DNA from: Stella humosa
GTDB taxonomy: Bacteria; Pseudomonadota; Alphaproteobacteria; ATCC43930; Allostellaceae
Assembly (NCBI RefSeq): GCF_006738645.1
Contig: NZ_AP019700.1
Coordinates: 3,764,001 to 3,828,000 of the forward strand
Direction: 5' to 3'
DNA length: 64,000 nucleotides
Shown here: positions 42,182 through 59,460 of the stretch, one piece after another
How positions within the stretch are numbered: position 1 is the first letter of the stretch
Layout of the letters: every line of letters begins with the position of its first letter
Made by a program: the position numbers and the translations under genes
The notes under the pieces: generated by a model
The model's database searches: none
What the model was told of the DNA's origin: nothing
The model's input: only the letters and a program-made list of their open reading frames with translations

Positions 42182-42877
42182 TCAGGCTGCGCCGCAGCAG
42201 GTGGAGTGGCGCAGCCGGCGCTCGCCGCGGGCGGTCAGGACCTGCCGCAGCATCATGCTGAGGCCGCGGTCGACATACTCCTCGACATCCATGCGGCTGG
42301 CGAAGCGCCAGGCCTTCAACGCCCAGCCGTGCGAGAACATGACGATCTGGTGGGTAAAGAGTTCGACGTCGACGGCGTCGAACAGGCCGGCCTCAACGCA
42401 GTCGCGGACGCAGGCGGCGATCAGCTCGTTGGTCTCGACCTCGGTCTGCTTGATCAGGTTGCGCCGTTCCTTGCGCAGCGACTTGGTCTCGCGATAGGCC
42501 AGCACGGTGGCCGCCACCGACTCCCCATTGACGCGGCAATAGGTGCGCACGGCCGTGCAAAAGCGGTCGAGCGGCTCGGCCACGCCGTCCAGCGCCACGG
42601 GAATGCGCGCCTTGTAGCTGTCGAGCACCTGGGCCAGTGCCAAGTAGAGGAGATCCTCCTTGTCCTCGACATACTGGTAGATGAGCCCGATGCTGACATT
42701 GGCGCGCTCGGCCACGTCGCGGATGGTCGTGGTGTGATAGCCGCGCTCGCTGAAGAGCTCGATCGCCGCCTCGGTCAGTTGCTGACGCCGGCGCAGGATC
42801 AGTTCCGGGTCGTCGACCTTGCTCTTGATCGTGTCCGGGCTCTTGATCGTATCGGGACTCTTGATGGTATCGGACAA
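42182..42877 (-). CDS. TetR-family transcriptional regulator
   Basis: Repressor-type protein of 231 residues. HTH at about residues 30-75: LTEAAIELFSERGYHTTTIRDVAERANVSIGLIYQYVEDKEDLL; the rest is a TetR ligand domain. It likely begins with TTG at 42877, since no ATG or GTG fits before the HTH without crossing the terminator; ribosome site GAGGCGG is close. Its first 20 residues hold three tandem copies of DTIKSP. It closes the livHMGFK operon, so I propose it binds the two matching dyads at 47645-47668 and 59443-59460. It ends 2 bases from the convergent kinase gene. Confidence 0.88.
   Translation of the reverse strand: MSDTIKSPDTIKSPDTIKSKVDDPELILRRRQQLTEAAIELFSERGYHTTTIRDVAERANVSIGLIYQYVEDKEDLLYLALAQVLDSYKARIPVALDGVAEPLDRFCTAVRTYCRVNGESVAATVLAYRETKSLRKERRNLIKQTEVETNELIAACVRDCVEAGLFDAVDVELFTHQIVMFSHGWALKAWRFASRMDVEEYVDRGLSMMLRQVLTARGERRLRHSTCCGAA
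42821..42874 (-). repeat. Three tandem 18-bp repeats at the start of the TetR gene
   Basis: Units 42821-42838, 42839-42856 and 42857-42874 differ at a few bases and encode DTIKSP, DTIKSP, DTIKSK. Amino acids are better kept than bases, so the repeat may be under selection at protein level. Confidence 0.85.
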
Positions 42878-42893
42878 TGCCGCCTCAGATGGG

Positions 42894-42920
42894 AAAAGGG
42901 GGCCGGGACGGCTCGGCCCC
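42894..42920 (-). terminator. Intrinsic terminator-like hairpin between livK and the TetR gene
   Basis: Minus-strand reading gives GGGGCCG-N8-CGGCCCC followed by CC and TTTT, 17 bases before the proposed TTG start of the TetR gene. It would reduce read-through from the liv operon into its regulator gene. Confidence 0.55.
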
Positions 42921-42946
42921 GACCCCCTCGGAAGCACTAATGCAAG

Positions 42947-42980
42947 GCCGGTGCCCGCGGCAATCGCCACGGGCACCGGC
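42947..42980 (-). terminator. Long hairpin just after livK
   Basis: GCCGGTGCCCG-N12-CGGGCACCGGC, a perfect 11-bp stem 9 bases after the livK stop. No T-run. It may protect the liv mRNA 3' end or, with the next hairpin, attenuate transcription. Confidence 0.5.
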
Positions 42981-42988
42981 GGGCCCGT

Positions 42989-44182
42989 TCAGCCCGGCAT
43001 CTTGCAGGCGGCGTCGGCCGGCGGCGTCGCCGTCTCGGGCGGGACCGACATGGTGACGATCGGCTTCAGCTTGCCGTCCTTCTCGCCGACATAGCCGAAG
43101 AAGTTCGGACCGACGAGCTGGTGATCCTCCTTGCGCATCAGCTGCTTGCCGAGGATCGTGTCGAAGGTCGTGCCCTCCATCGCCTTGGCGACGTCGGCCG
43201 GCTTGCTGCTGCCCGCCTTGGCGATGGCCTGCAGCAACACCTGCATGCCGATATAGGTCTCGCCCTCGAAATTCGACGGCTCGGTGCCGGGATACTTCTT
43301 GGCCCAGTCTGCGACGAACTTCTTGTTGGCGGGGTTGTCCAGTGTGGAGCTGTAGTTGATGATCCCCCAGATGCCCTTGGACACGTCGCCCAGGGTCTTC
43401 ACCGTGTTGTCGGTGACGAAGCTGACGCCCGCGGTGAAGATGCTGTCGAACAGGCCGAACTGCTTGGCCTGCGTCGCGAAGTTGATGGCATCGCGCCCGG
43501 CCAGCGCCACCCACAGCCCCTCCGCACCCGAATCCTTGATCTTCTGGATGTAAGGGGCGAAGTCGTTGGTGCCGAAGGGCGAGTAGTTCTCCGACGCGAT
43601 GGTGCGCTTGTTGGCCTGGGCCGACTTGATGAAGCTGGCGCCGGAATCACGGCCCCAGGCGATGTCGGCGGCCATGATCGCCCACTTCGTCTCCTTGCGC
43701 TCGGCCAGCCACGGGGTAACGACGGCGCCGTCCGAAGCATCCAGACGGTTGGCGCGGAACATGCGCGGCTGGCAGGCCGACCCGGTGATCTGGTTGGCCT
43801 TGTTGATGGTGGAGATGTAGAGGGCGTCCCAGCGCTGGAGCATCGGCCCCATCGCCAGCCCCTCGCCCGAAGCGACCGTGCCGATCAGCAGCTTGTAGCC
43901 TTCGAGCGCCAGCTTCTCGCCCTGGCGGCGGGCCAGGTCGGGCTTGGCCTCGGTGTCGAGGAAGCGGGCCTCGGCCTTCTGGCCGCGGATGCCGCCGGCG
44001 GCGTTGATCTCGTCCACCGCGAACATGATCGCGCGCCGGGACTGCTCGCCCAGGTCGGCATAGGTGCCGGTGAGTGCGACCGGCACGCCGATCTTGATCG
44101 TCTCCTGCGCTGCGGTCGAACCCGCCGCCGCCAGCACGGTCGCCGCGGCAAGGCCCAGGCGCCTCATCCAAACCGTCTGCAT
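42989..44182 (-). CDS. livK: Branched-chain amino acid-type ABC transporter binding protein (LivK-like)
   Basis: Periplasmic binding protein of 397 residues with signal peptide (MRRLGLAAATVLAAAGSTAAQE) and a type I fold: IKIGVPVALTGTYADLGEQSRRAIMFAVDEINAAGGIRGQ, DTEAKPDLARRQGEKL, and TNDFAPYIQKIKDSGAEGLWVAL. Start ATG 44182, 7 bases after AAGGAG. Last of the transport genes in livH-M-G-F-K. In many soil bacteria such proteins bind aromatic or alicyclic acids rather than amino acids; operator sharing with a CoA-ester operon favours that here. Confidence 0.92.
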   Translation of the reverse strand: MQTVWMRRLGLAAATVLAAAGSTAAQETIKIGVPVALTGTYADLGEQSRRAIMFAVDEINAAGGIRGQKAEARFLDTEAKPDLARRQGEKLALEGYKLLIGTVASGEGLAMGPMLQRWDALYISTINKANQITGSACQPRMFRANRLDASDGAVVTPWLAERKETKWAIMAADIAWGRDSGASFIKSAQANKRTIASENYSPFGTNDFAPYIQKIKDSGAEGLWVALAGRDAINFATQAKQFGLFDSIFTAGVSFVTDNTVKTLGDVSKGIWGIINYSSTLDNPANKKFVADWAKKYPGTEPSNFEGETYIGMQVLLQAIAKAGSSKPADVAKAMEGTTFDTILGKQLMRKEDHQLVGPNFFGYVGEKDGKLKPIVTMSVPPETATPPADAACKMPG

Positions 44183-44244: not shown

Positions 44245-44940
44245 TCAGACCGCGACGTGCCGCTTCAGGGTCTCCATCGACAGGCCGGCCAGCTCGCCGG
44301 CCTCGATCACCGTCCCCTTGGAGAGGACGTAGTAGCGATCGGCCACGCGGCGAACGAGGCCGAAATTCTGCTCGATCAGGAGGATGCCGGTGCCCTCGGC
44401 GGCCAGCCGGCGGAAGATCTCCGCCAGCTCGTCGACGATGACCGGGGCCAGGCCCTCGCTCGGCTCGTCCAGCACCAGCAGGCTGGGGTTGGCCATGAGC
44501 GCGCGACCGATCGCCAGCATCTGCTGCTGCCCGCCGCTCAAGGCGGTGCCGGGCGTGTCGGCGCGCTCGCGCAGGATGGGGAACAGGTCGAACACGCGCT
44601 CCAGGTTCCAGCCGCCGCGCCGGCCGACGGCCGCCCCCAGCAGCAGGTTCTCACGGATCGACAGGCCGGGAATGATCCGGCGCCCCTGCGGCACGACGGC
44701 GATGCCGCTGCGGGCGGCGGTGAAGTGCTGGAAGCGGCTGGCGGTGCGGCCGGCCAGGTCGACCTCGCCCCGGCGGATCGTGGCAATGCCGAGGAAGGCG
44801 TTCACGACCGTGGTCTTGCCGACGCCGTTGCGCCCCAGGATCGCCACCCGCTCCTCGGGCCGGATGTCGAAGGTGACGCCGTGCAGCACCTGGGCGCGGC
44901 CGTAATAGGCGTCGACGTCGCGGAAGGCGAGCAGGCTCAT
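44245..44940 (-). CDS. livF: Branched-chain amino acid-type ABC ATPase LivF
   Basis: ATPase of 231 residues: Walker A ILGRNGVGKTT, signature LSGGQQQM, Walker B LLVLDEPSEGLAP, and the LivF tail GTVIEAGELAGLSM. It follows livG by 13 bases and precedes livK by 62. Forms the ATPase pair with LivG on the cytoplasmic face of LivHM. Confidence 0.93.
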   Translation of the reverse strand: MSLLAFRDVDAYYGRAQVLHGVTFDIRPEERVAILGRNGVGKTTVVNAFLGIATIRRGEVDLAGRTASRFQHFTAARSGIAVVPQGRRIIPGLSIRENLLLGAAVGRRGGWNLERVFDLFPILRERADTPGTALSGGQQQMLAIGRALMANPSLLVLDEPSEGLAPVIVDELAEIFRRLAAEGTGILLIEQNFGLVRRVADRYYVLSKGTVIEAGELAGLSMETLKRHVAV

Positions 44941-44953: not shown

Positions 44954-45670
44954 TCATTCTACCGAACTTCCGAGATAGGCGGTGATGACCTCCGGGATGC
45001 GACGGATCTCGTCCGGCGTGCCGTCGGCCAGGATCTTGCCCAGGTGCAGCACGGTCACCCGGCTGCAGATCGAGAAGATCACCTCCATGTCGTGCTCGAC
45101 CAGCAGCACGGTCACGCCCCAGCGCCCGGCGAGGTCGCGCAGGATGCCGGCCAGCACCATCGATTCCTGCATCGACAGGCCGGCTGCCGGCTCGTCCAGC
45201 AGCAGCACGCGCGGCCGGCCTACCAGGGCCAGGGCCAGGTCCAGCCGGCGCTGGTCGCCGTAGGAGACATCGGCGGCGCGGCGGTGGGCCAGCTCGGTCA
45301 GGCCCAGCTCGGCCATCACCTCGTCGCTGTTGTCCTGCTCGGCGGTAGCGGCCGCCAGGCGCACCTGCTCGTCGATGGTGAGGTCGGGGAAGATGTTGGT
45401 GCGCTGGAAGGAGCGCGCGAGGCCGGCACGACGACGCTCGACCGCGCCCAGGCCGCTGATGTCGCGGCCGTCCATGGCGACCTTGCCGCTCCAGTTCTGG
45501 GCACGGCCGGAAAGCACGTCCATCAGGGTCGACTTGCCGGCCCCGTTGGGGCCGATCAGGCCGCGGATCTCGCCGTGGGGAACCGCCAGGGATACGCCGT
45601 CCAGCGCCGCGAAGCCGCCGAACCGGCGCGTCATGCCGACGCCCTCGATGGCGAAGGTCGAGGCGGTCAT
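44954..45670 (-). CDS. livG: Branched-chain amino acid-type ABC ATPase LivG
   Basis: ATPase of 238 residues: Walker A LIGPNGAGKST, signature VSYGDQRRLDLALAL, Walker B VLLLDEPAAGLSMQE, and the LivG-typical LARSFQRTNIFPDLTIDEQVRLA. Start ATG 45670 overlaps the livM stop by 4 bases (ATGA). It would pair with LivF. Confidence 0.93.
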   Translation of the reverse strand: MTASTFAIEGVGMTRRFGGFAALDGVSLAVPHGEIRGLIGPNGAGKSTLMDVLSGRAQNWSGKVAMDGRDISGLGAVERRRAGLARSFQRTNIFPDLTIDEQVRLAAATAEQDNSDEVMAELGLTELAHRRAADVSYGDQRRLDLALALVGRPRVLLLDEPAAGLSMQESMVLAGILRDLAGRWGVTVLLVEHDMEVIFSICSRVTVLHLGKILADGTPDEIRRIPEVITAYLGSSVE

Positions 45671-46665
45671 CGCTCCCTCCTCCCGGTCAGCCGGTCCGTG
45701 GCCCAGACGATGATGCCGCCGACGCCACGCGGCAGCAGCACCGTCACCAGGATCAGGGTGATGCCGATGACGGCCGGCCAGTGATCGGTGAAGTCGCCGG
45801 CCGCGTTCTTGATGAAGAAGAAGATGACGCCGCCCAGCGCCGGCCCCCACACCAGCCGCGGGCCGCCGATGATGGCCATGATCAGGGCCTCGCCCGACAG
45901 GCTCCAGTGCAGCGTGCCGGGCGACACGAAGCCGTTGTAGAGGGCGAACAGCAGGCCGGCGACCGAGGCGATGGCGGCCGAGACGGCATAGACGATCGCC
46001 CGCGGGACCACCGTGCGGTAGCCGATGTAGCGCGCGCGTTCCTCGTTCTCGCGGATGGCCAGGGTCAGCGTGCCGAAATGGCTGCGCTGCAACAGCCACA
46101 GGCCCAGAATGATCGCCACCAGGGTCATCCAGGAGATGAGGAACATGCTGGCCGGCTGCTGGAACGTCGCCATGTCGATGCCGAACACGCGCGACGGAAA
46201 GGCAATGGCCATGCCGTCGTCGCCGTTGGCGAGTTCGCGCCACTTCAGCACCAGCTCGTGGAACGCCTGGGCGACGGCCAGCGTCAGCATCGAGAAGGCG
46301 ACGCCGGTGACGCGCACGATGACCACGCCCAGCGCCAGCGCAAACAGCGTCGGCAGCAGGACCGCCAGCACGATCGCCGCCTCGGCGGGCAGGCCGAACT
46401 TGATCAGCAGCGCGGTGGCATAGGCCGACAGGCCGAAGAAGGCGGCATGGCCGAAGCTGACATTGCCGCTCTGGCGCACCAGGAACCCCACGCCGGTGGC
46501 CAGCACCGCATTGATCGCGGCCTGGGTCATCAGGGTCAGGAAGAGCTGGGACTTGACCACGAACGGCAGGGCGCAGCCCGCCACCGCGAAGGCGAGGAGG
46601 ACGACCAGGAAGCCCAGCCGGCGCGCGCGTGGCCGGGCCGGCATGGTTGCGGCGATCGGCGTCAT
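45667..46665 (-). CDS. livM: Branched-chain amino acid-type ABC permease LivM
   Basis: Permease of 332 residues with about eight to ten helices. Motifs: AVLATGVGFLVRQSGNVSFGHAAFFGLSAYATALL, and the coupling loop LTLAIRENEERARYIGYRTV, then GEALIMAIIGGPRLVWGPALGGVIFFF. Overlaps livH by 4 bases and livG by 4 bases. Forms the channel with LivH. Confidence 0.93.
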   Translation of the reverse strand: MTPIAATMPARPRARRLGFLVVLLAFAVAGCALPFVVKSQLFLTLMTQAAINAVLATGVGFLVRQSGNVSFGHAAFFGLSAYATALLIKFGLPAEAAIVLAVLLPTLFALALGVVIVRVTGVAFSMLTLAVAQAFHELVLKWRELANGDDGMAIAFPSRVFGIDMATFQQPASMFLISWMTLVAIILGLWLLQRSHFGTLTLAIRENEERARYIGYRTVVPRAIVYAVSAAIASVAGLLFALYNGFVSPGTLHWSLSGEALIMAIIGGPRLVWGPALGGVIFFFIKNAAGDFTDHWPAVIGITLILVTVLLPRGVGGIIVWATDRLTGRRER

Positions 46666-47510
46666 GCGCGGCCTCCCGCCAGGCCGGTCGGGCGCCAGAT
46701 CAGCACCGCCACCATCAGCAGGAAGGGGATCAGCGACGCCGCCCAGGGGACATAGACGATCCCGAAATTATGCACCTGGCCGATCAGCAGTGCTGCGATG
46801 AAAGCGCCGGTGAAACTGCCGAGGCCGCCCACGACCACCACGATGAAGCTGTCGATCAGGATGAAGCTGCCCATCGACGGCGACAGTGCCATCAAGGGGG
46901 CGGCAATGGTGCCCGACAGGCCGGCGAGGCCGGCACCGATGGCGACCACCACGGCGCTGACGCGATCGGTGTCGACACCCTGCATGCCCGTCGTCACCGG
47001 ATCGACGCTGGAGGCGCGGACATAGAGGCCGATGCGGCTGAACCGCAGCCAGAGGCTGAGCCCGGCGGCAACCAGGACGGCCACGCCGATCACCATCAGG
47101 CGATAGACGGGGAAGGTCTCGCCCGCGATCGACACGGTGCCGGACAGCAGGGGCGGGGCGGCCAGCGACAGGAAGTCCTTGCCCCAGATCGTCTTCACCA
47201 CGTCTTCGAGCACCAGCAGCAGGCCGAAGGTGACCAGCACGGTCGCGATCGGATCCTCGTGCTGGAGCGGGCGGAAGACGAAACGGTCGAGGATGACTCC
47301 CAGTATCGCCAGGGCGGCGATCGCGACCGGCAGGGCGACCCAGAAGCCGCCATGGGCGGCGACCGCGAACGCGATATAGCCGCCGACCATGAACAGGCTG
47401 CCATGGGCGAAGTTGACGACCCGGCGCAGGCCGAAGATCAGCACCAGGCCAACGGAGAGGATGTAGAGCAGCCCGCCATAGACAAGGCCGTTCAGGACGT
47501 TGATCACCAT
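46662..47510 (-). CDS. livH: Branched-chain amino acid-type ABC permease LivH
   Basis: Permease of 282 residues with about eight helices: NGLVYGGLLYILSVGLVLIFGLRRVVNFAHGSLFMVGGYIA, and VRASSVDPVTTGMQGVDTDRVSAVVVAIGAGLAGLSG (coupling loop). Start ATG 47510 gives the standard LivH opening; an in-frame extension upstream lies in the promoter leader. First gene of livHMGFK, 135 bases downstream of a TetR-type operator overlapping its promoter. Confidence 0.93.
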   Translation of the reverse strand: MVINVLNGLVYGGLLYILSVGLVLIFGLRRVVNFAHGSLFMVGGYIAFAVAAHGGFWVALPVAIAALAILGVILDRFVFRPLQHEDPIATVLVTFGLLLVLEDVVKTIWGKDFLSLAAPPLLSGTVSIAGETFPVYRLMVIGVAVLVAAGLSLWLRFSRIGLYVRASSVDPVTTGMQGVDTDRVSAVVVAIGAGLAGLSGTIAAPLMALSPSMGSFILIDSFIVVVVGGLGSFTGAFIAALLIGQVHNFGIVYVPWAASLIPFLLMVAVLIWRPTGLAGGRA

Positions 47511-47644
47511 GGGGAATGCGCCCTGCGGCGTTGGCCCGGGGGCGCGCCGCGTCCGTGTGGCGCCGGCGTCAGCATGCTTCGCGTCTCCCTCCTCCGGTGC
47601 GGCCTTTCCCATTGTCCCGCTCGTTGGCGGAGGGCCGCTTTATC

Positions 47645-47668
47645 GACTGAATGATGGTTCATTCAGTC
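47645..47668. promoter_or_regulatory. TetR-type operator upstream of livHMGFK
   Basis: Perfect 10-bp inverted repeat GACTGAATGA-N4-TCATTCAGTC. Its core TGAATGA-N4-TCATTCA matches the dyad upstream of the acyl-CoA dehydrogenase operon (59443-59460) and overlaps the predicted -10 of the liv promoter, as expected for a repressor. It is the best candidate target of the TetR protein at 42.2-42.9 kb. Confidence 0.75.
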
Positions 47669-47680
47669 AGGACAAGTCAA
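47651..47680 (-). promoter_or_regulatory. Predicted sigma-70 promoter of livHMGFK
   Basis: TTGACT (47680-47675), an 18-base spacer and CATCAT (47656-47651). The same -10 sequence and spacer length occur at the catabolic operon promoter. The operator overlies spacer and -10. The -10 match is moderate (4/6). Confidence 0.45.
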
Positions 47681-47693: not shown

Positions 47694-48461
47694 CTAGGTG
47701 GCGGTGAATCCGCCGTCGACATGCAGAATCTGCCCGGTCACGAAGGCCGAAGCGGGTGCTGCCAGGAACACCAGCGCGCCCGCCAGGTCCTCGGGCTGGC
47801 CCAGCCGGCCGAGCGGCATGCGCGCCAGCACGGTGCCGTAGACCTGCGGCTGCTTCTCGATCAGGTGGCGGTTGAGGTCGGTGACGAAGACGGTGGGCGC
47901 CACCGCGTTCACGTTGATGCCCTTGGGACCCAGCTCGACCGCCATCGCCCGCGTCAGGTTGGCCACCGCCGCCTTGGCCGCGCAGTAGGGCGAGCGGTTC
48001 GGGATGCCGTGGGAAGCGAGGATGGACGCCATGTTGATGATGCGGCCCGACCCGCGTGCCGCCATCTGCGGCACGAGCGCGCGCACGCAGAGCCAGGTGC
48101 CCTTGGCGCTGACGTCCATGACGTCGTCCCAGGCATCCTCCTCGAGGTCCGTCACGGTCGCGGTCGCGATGACGCCGGCATTGTTGAAGAGGATGTCGAC
48201 CCGGCCGAAGGCGTCGAGCGCCCTGGCCGCCATGGCATCCACCGACTCGCGCCGGCGCACGTCGACTTCCAGCGCCAGCGCACGGCGGCCGGTCGCGCGG
48301 ATTTCCGCCGCCACCTGCTCGCCCTGCTCCAGGCCGCGGGCGGCGACGATCACGTCGGCGCCGGCGGCGGCGAAAGCCCGGGCGCCAAGGGCGCCGAGCC
48401 CACGATTGCCGCCGGTCACGAGCGCCACCTGGCCATCCAGGCGGAAGCTGGGAAAGTTCAT
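47694..48461 (-). CDS. Short-chain dehydrogenase/reductase (last gene of the catabolic operon)
   Basis: Classical SDR of 255 residues: TGGNRGLG cofactor loop, NNAGVIATATVTD, Ser in NMASILAS with YCAAK, and a C-terminal FVTGQILHVDGGF. Start ATG 48461 after AAGGA. Ends 14 bases before the liv promoter. In a CoA-ester operon it most likely oxidises a 3-hydroxyacyl-CoA or a sugar-acid-like alcohol. Confidence 0.87.
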   Translation of the reverse strand: MNFPSFRLDGQVALVTGGNRGLGALGARAFAAAGADVIVAARGLEQGEQVAAEIRATGRRALALEVDVRRRESVDAMAARALDAFGRVDILFNNAGVIATATVTDLEEDAWDDVMDVSAKGTWLCVRALVPQMAARGSGRIINMASILASHGIPNRSPYCAAKAAVANLTRAMAVELGPKGINVNAVAPTVFVTDLNRHLIEKQPQVYGTVLARMPLGRLGQPEDLAGALVFLAAPASAFVTGQILHVDGGFTAT

Positions 48462-48480
48462 CGCAGTATCCTTCGGGATA

Positions 48481-49269
48481 TCAACCGGCCATCTGCCCGC
48501 CATCGACCGGCAGGGCGACGCCGGTCAACATGCGGGCCTCGTCGGAGGCAAGGAAGAGGGCCGCGTTCGCGGTGTCGATCGGCTCCGGCATGCGGCCGAG
48601 CGGAATGGTGGCGCGGAAGCGGCGGCGGGCCTCGTCCATGTCGGCGGCCATGCCGGGCAGGAACTTGGGCAACATCGCCGTCTCGGTCACGGTGGGGCAG
48701 ATGGCGTTCACGCGGATATTGGCCGGCGCCAGTTCCAGGGCCAGGCTGCGCACCAGACCGACGATGCCGTGCTTGGCGGCCGTGTAGATGCTGAAGTTGG
48801 GCCTGGCCTTGATCCCCTGCAGCGAGGAGGTGAAGAGGATCGCGGCCCCGCCCGGCCGCGCCTCGCCGGCGCGGCGCAGCGACGGCAGAGCGGCCTGGGT
48901 CATCTTCATCACGCCCAGCAGGTTGACGCCGACCACGCGCTCCAGCGTCTGGTCGTCGGCCGTCTCGAAGGCGCCCGCGAACGGGCCGCCGGCATTGTTG
49001 TGCAGGATGTCGAGGCCGCCGAACTCCGCCTCGGTGGCGGCCACGGCGGCCTCGTTCTGCGCCCGGTCGGTATGGTCGCAGGTGACGAAGGCCGCCCCGT
49101 CGCCCAGGTGGCGGGCGAGCGAGCGGCCGCGCTGCACGTCGATGTCGGCGATCATCACCCAGGCGCCCTCGGCATGGAACCGGCGCACCGTCGCCTCGCC
49201 CAGCCCGGAGGCGCCGCCCGTGATCAGGGCCACCCTTCCGGCCAGGCGCGTGCCCTTGGGGTCAGTCAT
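48481..49269 (-). CDS. Short-chain dehydrogenase/reductase
   Basis: Classical SDR of 262 residues: TGGASGLG, IADIDVQRG (Asp favours NAD), HNNAGGPFAGAF, Ser in FTSSLQG with YTAAK. It starts overlapping the small gene's stop by 4 bases (ATGA) and is followed 19 bases later by another SDR. Likely a 3-hydroxyacyl-CoA dehydrogenase-type step. Confidence 0.87.
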   Translation of the reverse strand: MTDPKGTRLAGRVALITGGASGLGEATVRRFHAEGAWVMIADIDVQRGRSLARHLGDGAAFVTCDHTDRAQNEAAVAATEAEFGGLDILHNNAGGPFAGAFETADDQTLERVVGVNLLGVMKMTQAALPSLRRAGEARPGGAAILFTSSLQGIKARPNFSIYTAAKHGIVGLVRSLALELAPANIRVNAICPTVTETAMLPKFLPGMAADMDEARRRFRATIPLGRMPEPIDTANAALFLASDEARMLTGVALPVDGGQMAG

Positions 49270-51278: not shown

Positions 51279-52442
51279 TCAGCGCCGCAGCACGAGCGCG
51301 CTGCCGCAGGTCATGGCGCCGGCCGTCGTCAGCGCGATCTCGGCATCCGGCACCTGGCGGGCGCCGGCATGGCCGCGCAACTGGCTGACCGCCTCGATCA
51401 CATGGTTGAAGCCGTGGATGTAGGCCTCCGACAGCAGGCCGCCGTGGGTGTTGACCGGCAGCGACCCGTCGCGGGCGATGTTGCCGTCGGCCACGAACGG
51501 GCCACCCTCGCCTTCCCGGCAGAAGCCCAGGCCCTCCAGCTGCATCAGCACGCTGTAGGTGAAGCAGTCATAGATCTCGGCCACGTCGACATCGGCCGGG
51601 CCGACCCCGGCCTTGCCCCACAGGTCGGCCGCGATGTAGCGGGCATAGTTGTGCGAATGGTCGGGCCAGCGCAGGGCGTCGAACAGGTCCTCGCCCTGGC
51701 TGGGGCCGCCGCCATAGGCCCCGCCCATGATGTGGACCGGCGTCTGGCGCAGGTCGCGGGCGCGCTCGGCGCGGGTGACCAGCACCGCGCAGGCACCATC
51801 CGATTCCAGGCAGATGTCGTAGAGGCGGAACGGGTCGACGATGAAGCGCGAGGCCATGTAGTCGTCCATCGACATCGGCTGGCGCTGCATGGCGCGCTCG
51901 TTGAGGACGGCATTGGCCCGCATGGTGACGGCGACCTGGCCCAATTGCTCGGCGGTCGTGCCGTATTCGATCATGTGCCGCCGGCACCACATCGCCATCG
52001 CCTGGGGATAGGTGATCCAGCCGAAGGGGGCCGTGTACTGGGTGATGCCATGGGCCGACATGTCGCGCCCGCCGCCCAGCCGGAAGCCCGACCGGCCGTT
52101 CATGGCGCGATAGCACAGCACGTTCTCGGCCAGGCCCGCCTCGATCGCGGCGATCGCCTGGAGGACGATGAGGTTGGCGGCGTTGCCGCCGCCGGCCGTG
52201 TCGACCGCGTAGCGCACCGCCGGCACGCCCAACTGGGTCGCGACCGCGATCGCCGGCACCGAGTCATTGAAGTGGAAACTGACGATGCCGTCGATCTCGT
52301 CGGGCGACATGCCGGCATCGTCGAGCGCGCCCAGGCAGGCCTCGCTCGCAAGGTCGAGCACGGTGCGGCCCGACGCCTTGGAGAAGGCGGTCGAGCCGAT
52401 GCCGGCGATGCAATACTTGTCCCGGAGCTGCCACTTGGACAT
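51279..52442 (-). CDS. Thiolase-fold protein lacking the usual nucleophile (SCP2-thiolase/Ltp-like)
   Basis: Thiolase superfamily protein of 387 residues: DKYCIAGIGSTAFSKASGRT, LASEACLGALDDAGMSPDEIDGI, EIYDCFTYSVLMQLEGLGF and NTHGGLLSEAYIHGFNHVIE (His). Where thiolases carry the catalytic Cys, it has VDTAGGGNAAN (residues 80-89) with no Cys. Such Cys-less members with a DUF35 partner (for example the steroid side-chain aldolase Ltp2) cleave by a retro-aldol reaction. So this may be an aldolase acting on a branched or hydroxylated acyl-CoA, not a thiolase. Confidence 0.85.
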   Translation of the reverse strand: MSKWQLRDKYCIAGIGSTAFSKASGRTVLDLASEACLGALDDAGMSPDEIDGIVSFHFNDSVPAIAVATQLGVPAVRYAVDTAGGGNAANLIVLQAIAAIEAGLAENVLCYRAMNGRSGFRLGGGRDMSAHGITQYTAPFGWITYPQAMAMWCRRHMIEYGTTAEQLGQVAVTMRANAVLNERAMQRQPMSMDDYMASRFIVDPFRLYDICLESDGACAVLVTRAERARDLRQTPVHIMGGAYGGGPSQGEDLFDALRWPDHSHNYARYIAADLWGKAGVGPADVDVAEIYDCFTYSVLMQLEGLGFCREGEGGPFVADGNIARDGSLPVNTHGGLLSEAYIHGFNHVIEAVSQLRGHAGARQVPDAEIALTTAGAMTCGSALVLRR

Positions 52443-52456: not shown

Positions 52457-53238
52457 TCAGGCGCCGAAGCGCGGGCGCCGCTTTTCCTGGAATGCCACCA
52501 GCCCCTCGGTCGCGTCGGGCTCGCTGGTGGCATAGCGATGGACGTAGTCGACCTCCATCCGCAGGCCGTCGGCGAACGATCCGCGAAGGCCCTGGTTCAC
52601 CAGATGCTTCATGCCCTCGATGCCGGCGCGGCTGCGCTCCATCAGGCCGGCGACCAGCGTGTCGACATGGGTGGCGAGGTCGGCCAGCGGCACCGCCTCG
52701 GCGACCAGGCCGATGCGCTCGGCCTCCACCCCGTCGACCAGTCGCCCGCTCAGCAGCAGCAGCTTGGCCCGCTGCGCGCCGATCGCCCGCGGCAGGCGCT
52801 GCGACCCGCCGGCGCCCGGGAGCTGGCCGAAATTCAGGTGGCCGTCGCCGATCTTCGCTTCCCGCGCGGCGATCGCCAGGTCGCAGGCCAGCATCAGCTC
52901 CAGGCCGCCCGCGACGCAGAAGCCGTTGATGGCGGCGATGTAAACGAGCCGCGAGCGCTCGATCGCGGTGCCGAGCTCGAAGAAATCCTCCAGGAAGGCC
53001 CGGAAGCCCGCCGTGTCGCGATAGAGCGAGATGTACCCTGCCAGGTCGCCGCCGGCCGAGAAGGCGCGCCCCGACCCGGTGATGACGACCGCGCGCAGGG
53101 CCGGGTCGGCCTCCGCCGTCGCCACGGCCCGGCGCAGTTCCTTCACCGTCGACCCGTCGAGCGGGTTCATCCGGTCCGGCTGGCGGAAGGTGATGGTGGC
53201 CCGGCCGTCCGCGGCCTCGTAGCCGATGCGCTCGAAAT

Positions 53239-53242
<4 letters not shown>
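52457..53242 (-). CDS. Enoyl-CoA hydratase/isomerase-family protein
   Basis: Crotonase-fold enzyme of 261 residues: [33 protein letters not shown] and [19 protein letters not shown] (oxyanion hole). The segment [18 protein letters not shown] has His where hydratases have the first catalytic Glu (PE...), so simple hydration is doubtful; isomerase, hydrolase or decarboxylase activity is possible. Overlaps the preceding acyl-CoA dehydrogenase by 4 bases. Confidence 0.88.
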
Positions 53243-54399
<1,157 letters not shown>

Positions 54400-54402
54400 C
54401 GG

Positions 54403-54864
54403 TCAGGATTCCGCGAAGAGGGCTGCGGGGGAGACACCCGGGTCGGCCGGCCGGTCGAGCTGGAAGACGCCGCTCGCCCGCATGACGATATCATCGCGGC
54501 CGGTACGCAGCAGGCATTGCGCAAAGCCGGTGCGCCGCCCCTGGCGCAGCACCTCCACCCGCCCCCAAACCAGCCGGCCCTGCGGCGCGGGCGCCAGGAA
54601 ATCGGCCGTCATGCCGATCGTCGGCACGAAGCGGTCCTCGCCCAGCCGGTCGCCAAGCCCGAAGCCCATGACCACGTCGGCCAGCGTCATCAACATGCCG
54701 CCATGGCAGGCGCCAACCGGGTTGCAATGGTGGGCGCCGACCCGGAAGCCCATGGCGAGGCCGTCCGGCTCGCGTCGCCACAGCAACGGCCCGACGGCGG
54801 CGAGGAACCCCCCGCCGGCCGCCAGCGGCCGCCAGCCCTCATCGGCATGCGGAGCATCAGTCAC
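54403..54864 (-). CDS. PaaI-type hotdog thioesterase
   Basis: Acyl-CoA thioesterase of 153 residues with the hotdog motif [20 protein letters not shown] (Asn/Gly/Asp catalytic set) and a second half ([34 protein letters not shown]). It starts with GTG 54864, 8 bases inside the preceding hydratase gene; an ATG at 54857 is out of frame. A thioesterase can free CoA from dead-end aryl- or acyl-CoA. Confidence 0.85.
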
Positions 54865-55705
54865 CCTGGAAGACAGGGCGTTCCTTGGCGACAAAGGCGC
54901 GATAGGCGCGGCCATAGTCCTGCGTCTGCATGCAGATCGCCTGGGCCTGGGCCTCGGCCTCGATCGCGTCGTCGATGGTCATGCTCCATTCCTGGTGGAT
55001 GCAGCGCTTGGTCATGGCATGGGCGAAGGTCGGCCCGGCAGCCAGCGAGGTGGCGAGCTTGGTTGCCTCGGCCAGCACCTGGTCGCCGGCCACCAGGCGG
55101 TTGTAGAAGCCCCAGCGCTCGGCCTCGGCGCCATCCATGGCGCGGCCGGTGTAGAGCAACTCGGCCGCCCGGCCGGACCCGATGATCCGAGGCAGGATGT
55201 TGCACGCCCCCATGTCCGCCCCCGCCAGCCCGACGCGCACGAACAGGAACGCCACCTTGCTCTCGGGCGTGCCGACGCGCAGGTCGGATGCCATGGCGAT
55301 GATGGCGCCCGCACCCGCGCAGATGCCGTCGATGGCGGCCACGATCGTCTGCGGGCAGGCGCGCATCGCCTTCACCAGGTCGCCGGTCATGCGGGTGAAG
55401 TCCAGCAGGCCGCGCATGTCGCCCGCCTCCTGCATGCGGACCAGCGGGCCGATGATCTCATGCACGTCGCCGCCCGAGCAGAAATTGCCGCCGGCGCCGG
55501 TGACGACGACCGTCTTCACGTTGTCGGCGTAGGCCAGTTCGCGGAAGGTGTCGCGCAGTTCGGCATAGGATTCGAACGTCAGCGGGTTCTTCCGCTCCGG
55601 CCGGTTCAGCGTGATGGTGGCGACCTTGCCGTCCAGGGACCACAGGAAGTGCTTGGGCTGGTAGGTGGCGAAGTCGATGCGGTTGCTGTCGAAGGCGAGC
55701 GCCAT
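54857..55705 (-). CDS. Enoyl-CoA hydratase-family protein, non-canonical
   Basis: Crotonase-fold enzyme of 282 residues: [56 protein letters not shown] (oxyanion hole) and [20 protein letters not shown] in place of the usual PGAGGT segment, with no PE glutamate. This subgroup (HFLW-DGK start, [10 protein letters not shown]) often lies in aryl-CoA gene sets beside SDR, thioesterase, acyl-CoA dehydrogenase and RidA genes. It may be a hydratase or ring hydrolase. Start ATG 55705. Confidence 0.87.
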
Positions 55706-55736
55706 GGCGGGTCCTTGAAGATTGGGCGGTGTCGGA

Positions 55737-56486
55737 TCAGTCGACCATCGTCAGGCCGCCGCTGACGCTCAGCACTTGGCCCGTGATGTAGTCGGAGCGG
55801 CGGCCGAGGAAGAAGGTCACGGCCTCGCCGATCTCCTCGGGCTGGGCGATCCGGCGGAAGGGGATGGCGCGGGTCAGCGCGTCGCGCATCTTCTCGGGCT
55901 GGGCCTGGAACAGCGGGGTATCGGTCGGCCCCGGGCAGACGCAGTTGACGTTGATCTTGTGCCGCGCCATCTCGCGCGCCAGCGACTTGGTGAAGGCGAT
56001 GAGGCCGCCCTTGGCCGCGGCATAGACCGTCTCGCCCATGCTGCCGACGCGGCCGGCATCGCTCGCCACATGCACGATCTTGCCCTTCTGGGCGGCCATC
56101 ATCGGTTCCAGCACCGCGCGGGTCAGGCGGACGGCACCCATCAGGTTGATCTGGACGACGCGCTCCCACATCTCGGGCGTATTGTCGATGAAGGGCTGGA
56201 TGCGGTCCCAGCCGGCGGCGTTCACCAGCCCGTCGACCGGCCCGCCGATGCGGGCATGCACATCGGCTGCGAAGGCGTTGACGCCGGCCGGGTCGGTCAG
56301 GTCGAGCGGGATGTACTCGAACTTCACCCCCTGCTCGGCCGCCATCGCCTCGGTCTTGCGGCCGCCCTCCTGGTCGATGTCGCCACCGAACACGCGCGCA
56401 CCCTCGCGCCCCAGCAGCAGCGCTGTCGCCCGGCCGATGCCCGACGAGGCGCCGGTGACGACGACGTTCTTGCCTGCCATTTCCAT
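55737..56486 (-). CDS. SDR resembling BadH (2-hydroxycyclohexanecarboxyl-CoA dehydrogenase)
   Basis: Classical SDR of 249 residues: [28 protein letters not shown], Ser in [14 protein letters not shown] with YAAAK, then [13 protein letters not shown] and [14 protein letters not shown]. The WD/KPF-like turn, the ASDAxRVGSxGE stretch and the SVSGGLTM end agree with what I recall of BadH from Rhodopseudomonas, in benzoyl-CoA/cyclohexanecarboxylate degradation. That is recognition from memory, not an alignment. Start ATG 56486, 5 bases after the next hydratase. Confidence 0.82.
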
Positions 56487-56491
56487 CTGTC

Positions 56492-57250
56492 TCAGCCCTT
56501 CCGGTCGAGGAAGCGGGCGACCAGCGCCCGCGTTTCGGTCGTTTCCAAGAGTGCGGCCCCGCCCGACACCTCGCGGGCGAAGCCGTCGACGGCCGGGTCC
56601 AGCGCTGCCGCGATGCAGGCGCGCGCCTCGGCCATCGCATGCGGCGGCAGGTCGGCCAGGCGGCGCGCAATGGCGCCGGCCGCGGCCGGCAGGTCGGCCA
56701 GAGGGGCCGACCATTGCACCAGGCCCAGACGTTCGGCGGTCGCCCCGTCCACGGTCTCCGCCCCCAGAATCAGGCGCTCGGCCACCGCACGGCCGACCAG
56801 GCGGGTCAGGCGCTGGGTGCCGCCGGCGCCCGGCAGTAGGCCGAGGCGCACTTCCGGCAGGCCAAGCTGGATCTCGTGCGCGGCGATGCGGAAGGTACAG
56901 GCGAGCGCCAGCTCGAAGCCGCCGCCCATGGCATGGCCGCCGATCTCCGCCAGGGACGGGCGCGGCAGGTCCTCGATGCGCTGGAACAGCACCTGCATCG
57001 CCCGCACGCCGACCTGGAAGGCGGCCCGCCCCTCGGGCGATCCATATTGCGCGCGCATGTCCTTCAGGTCGGCCCCGGCCGAGAACAGCCGCAGGGCCGA
57101 GCGGACATGCAGCAGGTTCCAGTCGTCGCGCGCCGCCAGCTCGTCCAGCCGGGCGTGGAAACCTGCGACCCAGGCCGCATTGATGGCGTTGGCGGGCGGG
57201 CGGTCGAGAGTCAGCGTGGCGACGCGGTCGGCTATCTCCAGATGCTGCAT
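56492..57250 (-). CDS. Enoyl-CoA hydratase
   Basis: Crotonase-fold enzyme of 252 residues with full catalytic set: LRLFSAGADLKDM, GGHAMGGGFELALACTFRIA and LPEVRLGLLPGAGGTQRLTR (Glu in PE, then the GAGGT loop). It should add water to a 2,3-enoyl-CoA; in a cyclohexanecarboxylate-type route it would fill the BadK role. Sixth base after the quinone oxidoreductase-like gene. Confidence 0.9.
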   Translation of the reverse strand: MQHLEIADRVATLTLDRPPANAINAAWVAGFHARLDELAARDDWNLLHVRSALRLFSAGADLKDMRAQYGSPEGRAAFQVGVRAMQVLFQRIEDLPRPSLAEIGGHAMGGGFELALACTFRIAAHEIQLGLPEVRLGLLPGAGGTQRLTRLVGRAVAERLILGAETVDGATAERLGLVQWSAPLADLPAAAGAIARRLADLPPHAMAEARACIAAALDPAVDGFAREVSGGAALLETTETRALVARFLDRKG

Positions 57251-57256
57251 CGTCCC

Positions 57257-58270
57257 CTACTCCGCCCCGGCGGCGCGACCGGCATCGGTCACCAGCACCA
57301 GCTTGCCCTCGACCCGGCGGCCGGCGATCTCGGCCAGGGCATCGGCTGCGCGCTCCAGCGGGAAGGTCGCCATCACCGGCGGGTCGAGCCGGCCGGCCGC
57401 GGCCATGGCGAACATTTCCGCCTGCGCCCTGGCGACCCGCGCGGGGTCGCGGTCGCGATAGTCGCTCCAATGGATGCCGGTGACGGTGATGTGCTTGATC
57501 AGCAGGTAGTTGGCCTTCACCGACGGGATCGCCCCGGCGGTAAAGCCGACGACGACCAGCCGCCCGTCCCAGGCCATCGCCCGCAAGGCCGCCTCGAACA
57601 CCGGCCCGCCAACCGGGTCAATGACGACATCAGCGCCGTGCCCATCGGTCGCTTCATGGACCGCGCGGCGCAGCCCGTCGCGCAGGTCGGCCATGCCGAG
57701 GTCGACCACCGCGTCGGCGCCGTGGCGGCGCACGAAATCGGCCTTGGCCATGGTGGTGAGGCCGGCCACGACGCGCGCACCCATGGCCTTGGCCAGTTCG
57801 ACCGCAGCGATGCCGACGCCGCCCGCCGCCCCCGTCACCAGCACCCATTCGCCGGGCCGCAAGCGGGCGCGATCGGTGAGCGAGAACCAGGAGGTCTGGT
57901 AGACCAGCCCCATGCCGGCCGCGCGCACGGTCGAGAGGCCGGCCGGCACCGGGTAGCAATGGGCGGCCGGAATGGCGGCCAGTTCGGCGAAGGCGCCGGA
58001 TTCCACCTGGGCCGCCACCCGGTCGCCAACCCGGAATCCGGTCACGCCGGCCCCGAGCGCACGGACCACGCCCGCCAGTTCCTTGCCCGGCGCGAAGGGC
58101 AGCGGCGGCAGGGTCTGGTAGGTGCCGCCGATCACCAGCAGGTCGGGGAAGTTGAGGCCGATGGCGTGGATCTCGACCAGCAGTTCGCCCGCCGCCGGCA
58201 CGGGGTCGGGCAGGTCGCGGAGAACCATCTCATCCGGCTGGCCGAACTTCTCGACGAGGAGGGCCTTCAT
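57257..58270 (-). CDS. NADPH:quinone oxidoreductase-type zinc-free MDR
   Basis: Medium-chain reductase of 337 residues: MKALLVEKFGQPDEMVLRDLPDP, PFAPGKELAGVVRALGAGVT, cofactor loop VTGAAGGVGIAAVELAKAMGA and HGADVVIDPVGGPVFEAALRAM. Lacks the zinc ligands of alcohol dehydrogenases. Homologues reduce quinones, enones or enoyl-CoA (crotonyl-CoA reductase-like). Located between two CoA-ester genes, reduction of an enoyl intermediate is possible. Confidence 0.88.
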   Translation of the reverse strand: MKALLVEKFGQPDEMVLRDLPDPVPAAGELLVEIHAIGLNFPDLLVIGGTYQTLPPLPFAPGKELAGVVRALGAGVTGFRVGDRVAAQVESGAFAELAAIPAAHCYPVPAGLSTVRAAGMGLVYQTSWFSLTDRARLRPGEWVLVTGAAGGVGIAAVELAKAMGARVVAGLTTMAKADFVRRHGADAVVDLGMADLRDGLRRAVHEATDGHGADVVIDPVGGPVFEAALRAMAWDGRLVVVGFTAGAIPSVKANYLLIKHITVTGIHWSDYRDRDPARVARAQAEMFAMAAAGRLDPPVMATFPLERAADALAEIAGRRVEGKLVLVTDAGRAAGAE

Positions 58271-58280
58271 GAACCGTCCC

Positions 58281-59417
58281 TCAATGGCCGGTCAGCGCGC
58301 GGTTGATGACCAGGCGCTGGATGTCGTTGGTGCCCTCGTAGATCATCGCCACGCGGACGTCGCGATAGATGCGCTCGACCCCCATGTCAGCCATGTATCC
58401 GGCGCCGCCGAAGGTCTGGATGGCGTCGCGGCAGATACGCTCGGCCGCCTCGGACGCGAACAGCTTGGCCATCGAGGCCTCGACCAGGCAGGGCTGGCCG
58501 GCACTTTTCAGGGCGGCGGCATGGAGGACGAGCTGCTCGGCGGCGGCCAGGTGCGTCGCCATGTCGGCCAGCCGGAAGCCGACGGCCTGGTGGGCGGCGA
58601 TCGGCTTGCCGAAGGTGACGCGCTCCTTGGCATAGGCGACCGCCAGGTCGAGTGCGGCCCGCGCCATACCGACCGACTGGGCGGCAATACCGATGCGCCC
58701 ACCCTCGAGGTTGGCCAGCGCGATACGATAGCCGCCACCCTCGGCACCCAGCAGCGCGTCGGCATCGACCTCGACCCCGTCCAGGATGATCTCGCAGGTG
58801 TCGGACGCCGACTGGCCCATCTTCTTCTCGACCCGGCCGACCCGGTAGCCCGGATTGTCGGTCGGCACCAGGAAGCCGGACAGGCCGCGCTTGCCCTGGT
58901 CGGGGTCGGTCACGGCGAAGACGATCGCCATGTCGGCCGTCGAGCCCGAGGTGATGTACTGCTTGACGCCGCTGATCTTCCAGCCGCCGTTGGTGCGCAC
59001 CGCTCGGGTCCGGATCGCGCCCGCATCCGACCCGCCCTGCGGCTCGGTCAGGCAGAAGGCGACGAGCAGCTCGCCCCTGGCCATCGGCCTGAGCCAGCGT
59101 TCCTTCTGCGCGGGCGTGCCATGGTCCAGCAGCGGCATGCAGCCGACCGAATTGTGCCCGCTCATCATCGTCGAGACCGCGCCGTTGCCGGCCGCGATCT
59201 CGATCAGCGCCAGGGCATAGGCGATATAGTCGGCCCCAGACCCGCCCCACTCCTCGGGCACCGTCATGCCGAGCAGGCCGAGCCGCCCCATCTCCCCCAG
59301 GACCGCGCGCGGCACGGCGCGCGCCTCTTCCCAGGCAGCAGCATTGGGCGCCAGTGCGGCCTGCGCGAAGGACCGCGCCATGTCGCGGACGAGCAGATGC
59401 TCTTCGGCCAGGATCAA
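58281..59417 (-). CDS. Acyl-CoA dehydrogenase (first gene of the catabolic operon)
   Basis: FAD enzyme of 378 residues: AFCLTEPQGGSDAGAIRTRA and GVKQYITSGSTADMAIVFAV (FAD/substrate loops), and YRDVRVAMIYEGTNDIQRLVINRAL with the catalytic Glu. Start is TTG 59417, 6-7 bases after GGGGGAGGAACCC; this gives the normal family opening (ILAEEHLLVRDM) and length, whereas a longer frame would run through the operator. In an alicyclic acid route this would be an AliB-type cyclohexanecarboxyl-CoA dehydrogenase. Heads 14 closely spaced genes down to 47.7 kb. Confidence 0.92.
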   Translation of the reverse strand: MILAEEHLLVRDMARSFAQAALAPNAAAWEEARAVPRAVLGEMGRLGLLGMTVPEEWGGSGADYIAYALALIEIAAGNGAVSTMMSGHNSVGCMPLLDHGTPAQKERWLRPMARGELLVAFCLTEPQGGSDAGAIRTRAVRTNGGWKISGVKQYITSGSTADMAIVFAVTDPDQGKRGLSGFLVPTDNPGYRVGRVEKKMGQSASDTCEIILDGVEVDADALLGAEGGGYRIALANLEGGRIGIAAQSVGMARAALDLAVAYAKERVTFGKPIAAHQAVGFRLADMATHLAAAEQLVLHAAALKSAGQPCLVEASMAKLFASEAAERICRDAIQTFGGAGYMADMGVERIYRDVRVAMIYEGTNDIQRLVINRALTGH

Positions 59418-59442
59418 GGGTTCCTCCCCCTCACGCGATCTA

Positions 59443-59460
59443 TGAATGATCGTTCGTTCA
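59443..59460. promoter_or_regulatory. TetR-type operator upstream of the catabolic operon
   Basis: TGAATGA-N4-TCGTTCA, an imperfect inverted repeat with the same half-sites and 4-base spacer as the liv operator. It sits just downstream of the predicted -10, overlapping the likely transcription start, 25 bases before the TTG start. Suggests shared repression of both operons. Confidence 0.7.

What the first reader, a model, noticed from the sequence alone, without database searches (positions are those of the whole stretch)
42182..59460. One TetR regulon may join a liv transporter and a 14-gene CoA-ester operon
The dyads at 47645-47668 (perfect 10-bp arms) and 59443-59460 share half-sites TGAA[TC]GA and a 4-base spacer; both sit on promoters of the same design (TTGACW-N18-CATCAT). 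A TetR gene closes the liv operon between them. The sequences and spacing are seen; that this TetR protein binds them, and that uptake and breakdown are co-controlled, is inference. As a self-contained 17-kb uptake/breakdown unit it may be undescribed.
Basis: partly seen in the sequence, partly recalled or inferred. Interest (0 to 1): 0.78.

Follow-up and report, generated by a model that had tools for sequence, protein, structure and literature searches.

The report
TetR regulon for acid uptake, breakdown
In a star-shaped soil bacterium, one repressor protein probably switches on both an importer and a long set of breakdown genes for an unidentified organic acid; the kind of circuit is ordinary, but this repressor, its DNA mark and its pathway look undescribed.

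Summary
The two dyads are where stated, they are the only exact TGAAYGA-N4-TCRTTCA sites in the 5.83-Mb Stella humosa genome, and each adjoins a TTGACW-N18-CATCAT promoter-like element. The inference that the local TetR ties both operons together is supported by comparison, not by binding data. Both dyads are conserved in four Stella genomes. Outside Stella, 16 of 18 loci with this TetR have the dyad (0-1 mismatch) within 6 kb, against a mean of 0.09 of 18 for 419 permuted half-sites; 20 of 23 such sites lie just upstream of homologues of the same genes. Corrections: I count 13 catabolic genes, not 14; tetR is downstream of both dyads; and the unit is not self-contained. A third, weaker but conserved site lies 1.8 kb past the window, between a hydratase/CoA-ligase operon and an AcsA-like ligase gene. 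Most likely mechanism: an acyl-CoA-released repressor, co-transcribed with liv, controls uptake, activation and ring-type beta-oxidation of a probably alicyclic or aromatic acid. The kind is known (MbdR of Azoarcus CIB is closest); this regulator, operator and pathway were not found described in the papers searched.

The parts
42182..42976 (-). TetR-family regulator gene; true start uncertain, conserved protein begins near residue 46
   Evidence: TetR_N E 3.1e-15 and TetR_C_24 E 1.2e-9; orthologues 82-90% in two other Stella genomes
42989..44182 (-). livK-like substrate-binding protein
   Evidence: Peripla_BP_6 E 8e-79; below the NCBIfam UrtA and LivK cut-offs
44245..44940 (-). livF-like ATPase
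   Evidence: ABC_tran
44954..45700 (-). livG-like ATPase; the mechanical ORF runs to 46243 but overlaps livM, so the start is approximate
   Evidence: ABC_tran and BCA_ABC_TP_C
45667..46665 (-). livM-like permease
   Evidence: BPD_transp_2 E 9.8e-33
46662..47510 (-). livH-like permease; start placed at the ATG conserved in four Stella genomes, mechanical ORF to 47612
   Evidence: BPD_transp_2; alignment
47645..47668 (.). Dyad/operator P1 in front of liv-tetR, covering the -10 element
   Evidence: conserved in 4 of 4 Stella genomes
47651..47680 (-). Promoter-like TTGACT-N18-CATCAT
   Evidence: TTGAC conserved in 4 of 4 Stella genomes
47694..48503 (-). SDR oxidoreductase 1
   Evidence: adh_short_C2
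48481..49362 (-). SDR oxidoreductase 2
   Evidence: adh_short_C2
49439..50845 (-). PaaK-like CoA ligase; the first about 93 residues of the mechanical ORF (to 51124) overlap the OB-fold gene and are probably not translated
   Evidence: TIGR02155 171 bits, below its cut-off of 646
50842..51264 (-). ChsH2-type OB-fold/zinc-ribbon protein, likely partner of the thiolase
   Evidence: OB_ChsH2_C E 2.2e-21, zf-ChsH2 E 2.3e-11
51279..52442 (-). SCP2-type thiolase
   Evidence: Thiolase_C_1 E 2.5e-41; the SCP2-type label is recalled
52457..53242 (-). enoyl-CoA hydratase ech1
   Evidence: ECH_1
53239..54399 (-). acyl-CoA dehydrogenase acd2
   Evidence: Acyl-CoA_dh; 62-65% to genes beside ech2 homologues elsewhere
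54403..54915 (-). hotdog thioesterase
   Evidence: 4HBT
54857..55705 (-). enoyl-CoA hydratase of family PRK08258, ech2; the best conserved enzyme in the tetR loci outside Stella
   Evidence: NF006107 485 bits over a cut-off of 330; 63-87% there, some over part of the gene
55737..56486 (-). BadH-like SDR3
   Evidence: TIGR03206 267 bits, below its cut-off of 431
56492..57250 (-). enoyl-CoA hydratase ech3
   Evidence: ECH_1 E 1.3e-36
57257..58270 (-). zinc-type quinone/enoyl reductase-like protein
   Evidence: ADH_zinc_N; TIGR02824 249 bits, below its cut-off of 297
58281..59417 (-). acyl-CoA dehydrogenase acd1, first gene of the catabolic operon; TTG start, GTG at the same codon in the other three Stella genomes
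   Evidence: Acyl-CoA_dh; alignment
59443..59460 (.). Dyad/operator P2, just downstream of the -10 element
   Evidence: exact in 2 and with one mismatch in 2 of 4 Stella genomes
59469..59498 (-). Promoter-like TTGACA-N18-CATCAT
   Evidence: TTGACA conserved in 4 of 4 Stella genomes, CATCAT in 3 of 4
61664..63283 (-). acyl-CoA ligase, probable third gene of the operon behind operator P3
   Evidence: NCBIfam PRK06155 512 bits, below its cut-off of 722; synteny in L107 and L108
63298..63999 (-). AliA-like (cyclohexanecarboxylate) CoA ligase, cut by the window end; operator P3 lies at window coordinate 65809-65826, outside the window (L106:7810-7827)
   Evidence: whole protein: TIGR03208 790.8 bits against a cut-off of 792.3

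Best explanation
The TetR protein encoded at 42182-42976 is a dimeric repressor that binds TGAAYGA-N4-TCRTTCA. In Stella humosa it controls at least two, and probably three, promoters: P1 (liv transporter plus tetR itself, so it is autoregulated), P2 (the 13-gene catabolic operon from acd1 to SDR1) and P3, outside the window (a hydratase / AliA-like ligase / acyl-CoA ligase operon, with a divergent AcsA-like ligase gene). P1 and P2 are blocked by occupying the -10 or start region. A CoA thioester made from the imported acid, probably alicyclic or aromatic, most likely releases it, so uptake, activation and ring-type beta-oxidation rise together. Shown: the sites, their positions, their conservation and their association with this TetR. 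Inferred: binding, repression, the ligand class and the substrate class.
For: Only two exact sites in the genome, both here, control 0. P1 and P2 conserved in four Stella genomes while flanking non-coding sequence diverges. Outside Stella 16 of 18 tetR loci have a site with at most one mismatch within 6 kb; over 419 permuted half-sites the mean is 0.09 of 18 and only YGAATGA, a near-copy of the motif, ties. 20 of 23 of these sites lie within 350 bp upstream of a homologue of a regulon gene, where 6.8% of the sequence qualifies. The dyads adjoin the only two promoter-like elements found in 47400-59900. The third site is conserved, between the same two genes, in the four Stella genomes, and a dyad precedes an AliA-like ligase (54%) in L122 as well. 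Profile hits include regulators of acyl-CoA metabolism: Fatty acid metabolism regulator 3whb E 7e-17, KstR2 E 3e-16, 3vpr E 7.5e-15, though the best hit, 3dcf E 5.6e-25, has no named function; that KstR2, FadR and 3vpr (PfmR) answer to CoA esters is recalled. YR[ES]TKSL and H-WALK-W stretches are largely conserved in the family.
Against: No binding or expression data. The closest non-Stella tetR locus, L019 (67%), has only 2-mismatch sites, and so has L081. None of five plasmid homologues (31-50%) has a site with at most one mismatch within 6 kb, although pJP4 and pDB1 carry the variant TGAGTGA-N4-TCACTCA, within a 24-bp perfect palindrome, in front of livK. The dyad is not exclusive to this TetR: it occurs in 26 of 387 class genomes (reversed control 4 of 387), and in 4 of the 6 that have the TetR, two of those being Stella genomes that gave the pattern; of 22 loci from genomes without it, 5 have a distant TetR gene beside the site (L043, L044, L053, L061, L062). 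In G002 no tetR was found at E 1e-30 although liv and the three sites are there; its liv contig ends inside livK. P3 is weak (2 mismatches in S. humosa and S. vacuolata). CATCAT of P2 is not kept in G002.
Confidence: 0.82

Rival explanations
1. The dyads are operators, but of another TetR paralogue encoded elsewhere in the genome; the neighbouring tetR is a bystander.
For: S. humosa encodes at least 9 other TetR-like proteins matched by this one, and distant TetRs sit beside the same dyad in other genomes.
Against: The dyad follows orthologues of this TetR across Alpha- and Betaproteobacteria, often beside tetR itself. Four of the nine paralogues were looked at: they align over the HTH region only, at 38-42%, and lack the S-GLIYQY stretch conserved in this family. 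The other five were not examined.
Confidence: 0.08
2. Each dyad regulates only its own operon, and uptake and breakdown respond to different signals because P1 and P2 bind the repressor with different affinity or carry other regulators.
For: Dyad position relative to the -10 differs (covering it at P1, downstream at P2), and P1 has 10-bp arms whereas P2 has one arm difference.
Against: Same half-sites, same spacer, same promoter design and one neighbouring tetR; tetR is itself in the P1 unit.
Confidence: 0.12
3. The dyads act as RNA hairpins or terminators, or are chance palindromes.
For: P2 lies downstream of its -10 and could be transcribed.
Against: P1 covers the -10 and would not be transcribed whole; no terminator-like site is called at either dyad; conservation and controls speak against chance.
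Confidence: 0.02

Closest known systems
mbd cluster and MbdR of Azoarcus sp. CIB (PMC4424350, passages read)
   Same: TetR repressor; one regulon with a putative ABC transporter, a CoA ligase and CoA-ester catabolic genes; several operators over -10, -35 or start sites; an operator at its own promoter; released by the first CoA intermediate.
   Different: Operator ATACN10GTAT, not TGAAYGA-N4-TCRTTCA; our profile matches MbdR (4uds) only over positions 21-77 of 211, about the HTH (E 6.4e-10); mbd encodes anaerobic 3-methylbenzoyl-CoA degradation.
bad-ali cyclohexanecarboxylate pathway with BadR (PMC9795900, passages read)
   Same: AliA-like ligase (1.5 bits short of the AliA cut-off), BadH-like SDR, acyl-CoA dehydrogenases and hydratases; repressor released by a CoA ester.
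   Different: BadR is MarR-type with operator CAAN4TTG; no BadI over the cut-off in S. humosa (0 of 26 hits). The passages read mention a TetR-like gene for bad-ali clusters of Gram-positive bacteria and badR for Gram-negative ones.
Clusters with 'bifunctional salicylyl-CoA 5-hydroxylase/oxidoreductase' (link to the 2-aminobenzoyl-CoA pathway is recalled) on plasmids of Ruegeria pomeroyi, Paracoccus denitrificans, Comamonas odontotermitis
   Same: Adjacent ech2 (67-70%) and acd2 (62-64%) homologues, CoA ligase, and a liv-type transporter in two of the three stretches.
   Different: A MarR gene, no TetR gene, is annotated in the stretches; a hydroxylase heads the cluster; the SDR there is 29-37% to each of the three SDRs, so not an SDR3 orthologue.
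TetR-liv clusters on pAZKH of Azoarcus KH32C and on pJP4 of Cupriavidus pinatubonensis
   Same: TetR homologue (50% and 47%) next to liv genes, SDR and CoA-ligase genes.
   Different: No site with at most two mismatches on the pAZKH stretch; on pJP4 the variant TGAGTGA-N4-TCACTCA.

Membership tests
TetR family of repressors | N-terminal TetR HTH domain | tested here: met
   TetR_N 56 bits over the curated cut-off of 24
TetR family of repressors | binds a palindromic operator near its target promoters | tested here: inconclusive
   Association across genomes is strong, but binding was not measured
TetR family of repressors | small-molecule release from DNA | not testable with these tools
   Ligand inferred only from relatives
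MbdR orthologues | full-length orthology to MbdR | tested here: not met
   Profile match to 4uds covers only profile positions 21-77 of 211
MbdR orthologues | operator ATACN10GTAT | tested here: not met
   The two dyads read TGAAYGA-N4-TCRTTCA
bad-ali cyclohexanecarboxylate pathway | BadI ring hydrolase | tested here: not met
   TIGR03210: 0 of 26 hits over the cut-off, best 141.7 of 467.6 bits
bad-ali cyclohexanecarboxylate pathway | AliA ligase | tested here: inconclusive
   TIGR03208 790.8 bits against a cut-off of 792.3, over the whole profile
bad-ali cyclohexanecarboxylate pathway | BadH dehydrogenase | tested here: not met
   SDR3 scores 267 bits against a cut-off of 431; the rest of the genome was not searched for BadH
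Liv/HAAT ABC importer | one binding protein, two permeases, two ATPases in one operon | tested here: met
   same order in S. vacuolata and Stella sp. ATCC 35155
Liv/HAAT ABC importer | branched-chain amino acid as substrate | not testable with these tools
   Binding protein below the LivK and UrtA cut-offs; context argues for an organic acid

The most novel reading that the evidence does not exclude
This TetR defines an undescribed regulator family of Alpha- and Betaproteobacteria whose core regulon (SDR3, ech2 of family PRK08258, acd2, ech3 and a CoA ligase, AliA-like in Stella and in L122) is an undescribed aerobic route for opening an alicyclic CoA ester without BadI, to which Stella has added its own liv importer and a thiolase/OB-fold branch.
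Probability: 0.35. Interest if true: 0.58.

Novelty: new member of a known kind. Interest (0 to 1): 0.42.

Why it matters
It gives a specific, testable regulator-operator pair for a conserved but uncharacterised acid-degradation module, and a way to find its other members and substrate: search for the dyad, then test which acid induces it. It also gives a regulatory hypothesis for uptake and catabolism in the star-shaped genus Stella. The general principle, a CoA-ester-sensing TetR joining a transporter to a pathway, is already known.

Tried and rejected
Other S. humosa sites: the two 1-mismatch places elsewhere (1595185 and 5082581) looked unrelated. The first lies just after the end of a 177-codon ORF, the second inside a 408-codon ORF, and neither has a homologue of a regulon gene within its 3-kb locus. 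Of the 40 two-mismatch places only the one at 3829809 was followed.

FadP/LiuQ (regulators named in RegPrecise work): considered as the possible name of this regulator. PMC5343134 names them but the passages read print no motif for them, and the 2009 paper is not held. Not resolved. PA3973 of Pseudomonas aeruginosa was considered because of its TGAA half-sites; its motif SAAGRNMTGAACG and 14-bp palindromes differ (PMC9736018, passages). A Rhodococcus n-alkane paper holding TGAATGA (PMC6921075, passages) has it in a primer.

Literature: exact-letter searches for forms of the operator found 0 papers. 'TetR + TGAATGA + operator' held 49 papers, 15 listed; among those 15 none is on this system by title or start of abstract. 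Searches on acyl-CoA dehydrogenase with ABC transporter and TetR, on MbdR, on LiuR/FadP, on 2-aminobenzoyl-CoA, on cyclohexanecarboxylate with TetR and on TetR with aromatic CoA ligase (listings only) gave the precedents named but not this regulon. RegPrecise itself could not be searched. The held library lacks most subscription journals, so absence in print is not shown.

Rows dropped before the main count: the 5 plasmid homologues L034-L038 were left out of the 18 loci (0 of 5 with at most one mismatch within 6 kb; L038 has one about 6.7 kb away), so the figure including them is 16 of 23. In one search, with short flanks for the six Burkholderiales loci, the count was 13 of 18; it rose to 16 of 18 after longer stretches were fetched. 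L021, L022 and L023 are close relatives and not independent. In one search overlapping registers of one site were counted once; 3 of 23 sites had no regulon homologue within 350 bp.

Structure prediction was not run: it could not decide ligand or operator.
Full report
Source. The window lies in a single-contig genome of 5,832,650 bp. That is the length published for Stella humosa ATCC 43930, AP019700 (PMC6687932, whole text read); the name rests on this match of length. The closest relatives searched are G001 and G003, whose lengths are those of Stella sp. ATCC 35155 and S. vacuolata, and a fragmented genome of the same genus (G002).

Observation. Both dyads are at the stated coordinates. TGAAYGA-N4-TCRTTCA occurs exactly twice in the genome, both times here, and the reversed control pattern zero times. 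Dyad 1 contains the -10 hexamer of the liv promoter; dyad 2 begins 8 bases beyond the -10 of the acd1 promoter.

Genes. The genes of the unit, from 59417 down to 42182, are on the minus strand. The catabolic part has 13 genes by my count: acd1, a zinc-type reductase, ech3, SDR3, ech2, a hotdog thioesterase, acd2, ech1, a thiolase, its ChsH2-like OB-fold neighbour, a PaaK-like ligase, SDR2 and SDR1. The liv part has livH, livM, livG, livF and livK, followed by tetR, whose longest ORF begins 12 bases after livK. tetR is therefore probably transcribed from P1 and negatively autoregulated (inference). No terminator-like site on the minus strand separates SDR1 from livH, so read-through from P2 into liv is also possible.

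Conservation in Stella. P1 is identical over the 18-bp site in three genomes and differs at one consensus-allowed base in G002. P2 is exact in S. humosa and ATCC 35155 and has one mismatch in S. vacuolata and G002. TTGAC (P1) and TTGACA (P2) are kept in the four genomes, while much of the surrounding non-coding sequence has diverged; CATCAT of P2 is not kept in G002.

A third site. TGAACGAACGTTCACTCG (two mismatches) lies at genome position 3829809, window coordinate 65809, 1.8 kb past the window's end. It sits between an enoyl-CoA hydratase gene (PRK07327, 450 bits, over its cut-off), followed by the AliA-like and acyl-CoA ligase genes, and a divergent AcsA-like ligase gene. The site, between the same two genes, recurs in ATCC 35155 (one mismatch), S. 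vacuolata (two) and G002 (one). It is weaker than P1 and P2, so I treat its membership as probable only.

Beyond Stella. Orthologues of this TetR are rare: 6 of 43 genomes of the order, three of them Stella (E 1e-25); 6 of 387 sampled genomes of the class, two of them Stella (E 1e-35); 7 of 349 of the order of Bordetella sp. BOR01, that genome included (E 1e-45). The 18 loci outside Stella were tested. A site with at most one mismatch lies within 6 kb of tetR in 16 (exact in 8). For 419 permuted half-sites the mean is 0.09 of 18; one permutation, YGAATGA, reaches 16, and it differs from the motif only by exchanging T and Y. Of 23 such sites, 20 lie within 350 bp upstream of a homologue of a regulon gene; such positions make up 6.8% of the sequence. 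Targets are homologues of ech3, SDR3, ech2, acd2, acd1, thiolase, CoA-ligase and tetR genes, the CoA ligases at 30-32% except 54% in L122. In L122 the arrangement is compact: dyad, SDR3, ech2, acd2, tetR, then a dyad before the AliA-like ligase. The motif was taken from Stella and tested on other genomes; L021-L023 are close kin and not independent.

Results against. L019, the closest non-Stella locus (67%), has only 2-mismatch sites, and L081 likewise. Five plasmid homologues lack near-exact sites within 6 kb; pJP4 and pDB1 have a 24-bp perfect palindrome with TGAGTGA-N4-TCACTCA in front of livK, which could be a co-evolved variant (inference). The dyad also occurs in class genomes without this TetR (26 of 387 have it; 4 of the 6 with the TetR do, two of them Stella; reversed control 4 of 387). 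Of 22 loci from genomes without it, 5 have a distant TetR gene beside the site. So the operator is shared by a wider set of TetR proteins, and the claim for this protein rests on association, not exclusivity. G002 has the three sites but no tetR was found in it; its liv contig ends inside livK.

Mechanism. By position both dyads would block transcription initiation. The largely conserved C-terminal stretches (YR[ES]TKSL, H.WALK.W) and profile matches to regulators of acyl-CoA metabolism, among others, make a CoA-thioester inducer likely (inference). The substrate is unknown. An AliA-like ligase at 790.8 bits, 1.5 bits short of the cyclohexanecarboxylate-CoA ligase cut-off, a BadH-like SDR, and the ech2/acd2 pair shared with 'salicylyl-CoA 5-hydroxylase' clusters (62-70%) point to a ring-containing acid. 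The classical bad-ali route looks incomplete: no BadI over the cut-off in the genome, and SDR3 is below the BadH cut-off.

Comparison with the known. The circuit works like MbdR of Azoarcus CIB (PMC4424350, passages) but does not pass as a member of that family: the operator differs and the sequence match covers only about the HTH. It is not BadR (MarR, CAAN4TTG; PMC9795900, passages). Paper searches for the operator letters found nothing on this system, within the limits of the held library. I file it as a new member of a known kind, with an operator and a pathway that I did not find described as the interesting part.

Noticed in passing
L106:7810-7827 (window coordinate 65809-65826, outside the window): Third conserved operator-like site between a hydratase/AliA-like ligase operon and a divergent AcsA-like ligase gene; it suggests the regulon extends past the window.
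   Followed up: yes
L035:8502-8525 (plasmid pJP4) and L036:8491-8514 (plasmid pDB1): A 24-bp perfect palindrome, ATTTGAGTGAAGCTTCACTCAAAT, just upstream of the liv genes and near a TetR homologue on two catabolic plasmids; possibly a variant operator.
   Followed up: partly
window 42818-42871: The TetR N-terminus of S. humosa holds a tandem repeat DTIKSP-DTIKSP-DTIKSK; this part is poorly conserved, so the longest-ORF start may be wrong.
   Followed up: no
G106 (C18, C24, C36, C38, C149, C151, C152, C157, C160): The near-site TGAATCACAATTCGTTCA recurs 9 times, several at contig ends, perhaps the end of a repeat or mobile element unrelated to the regulon.
   Followed up: no
L043, L044, L053, L061, L062: Distant TetR genes (24-42% over short stretches) lie beside exact copies of the dyad in genomes without this TetR, so the operator is shared by a wider TetR subgroup.
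   Followed up: partly
L107:8396-10250: The AcsA-like gene of Stella sp. ATCC 35155 aligns in two overlapping pieces, suggesting a frame change or sequencing error.
   Followed up: no
window 40366-42180: A sensor histidine kinase gene resembling PhyK (297 bits, below the cut-off of 750) ends beside the end of tetR, convergent with it.
   Followed up: no
L106:9837-11993: A protein matching the ELWxxDGT repeat model lies next to the AcsA-like ligase gene.
   Followed up: no
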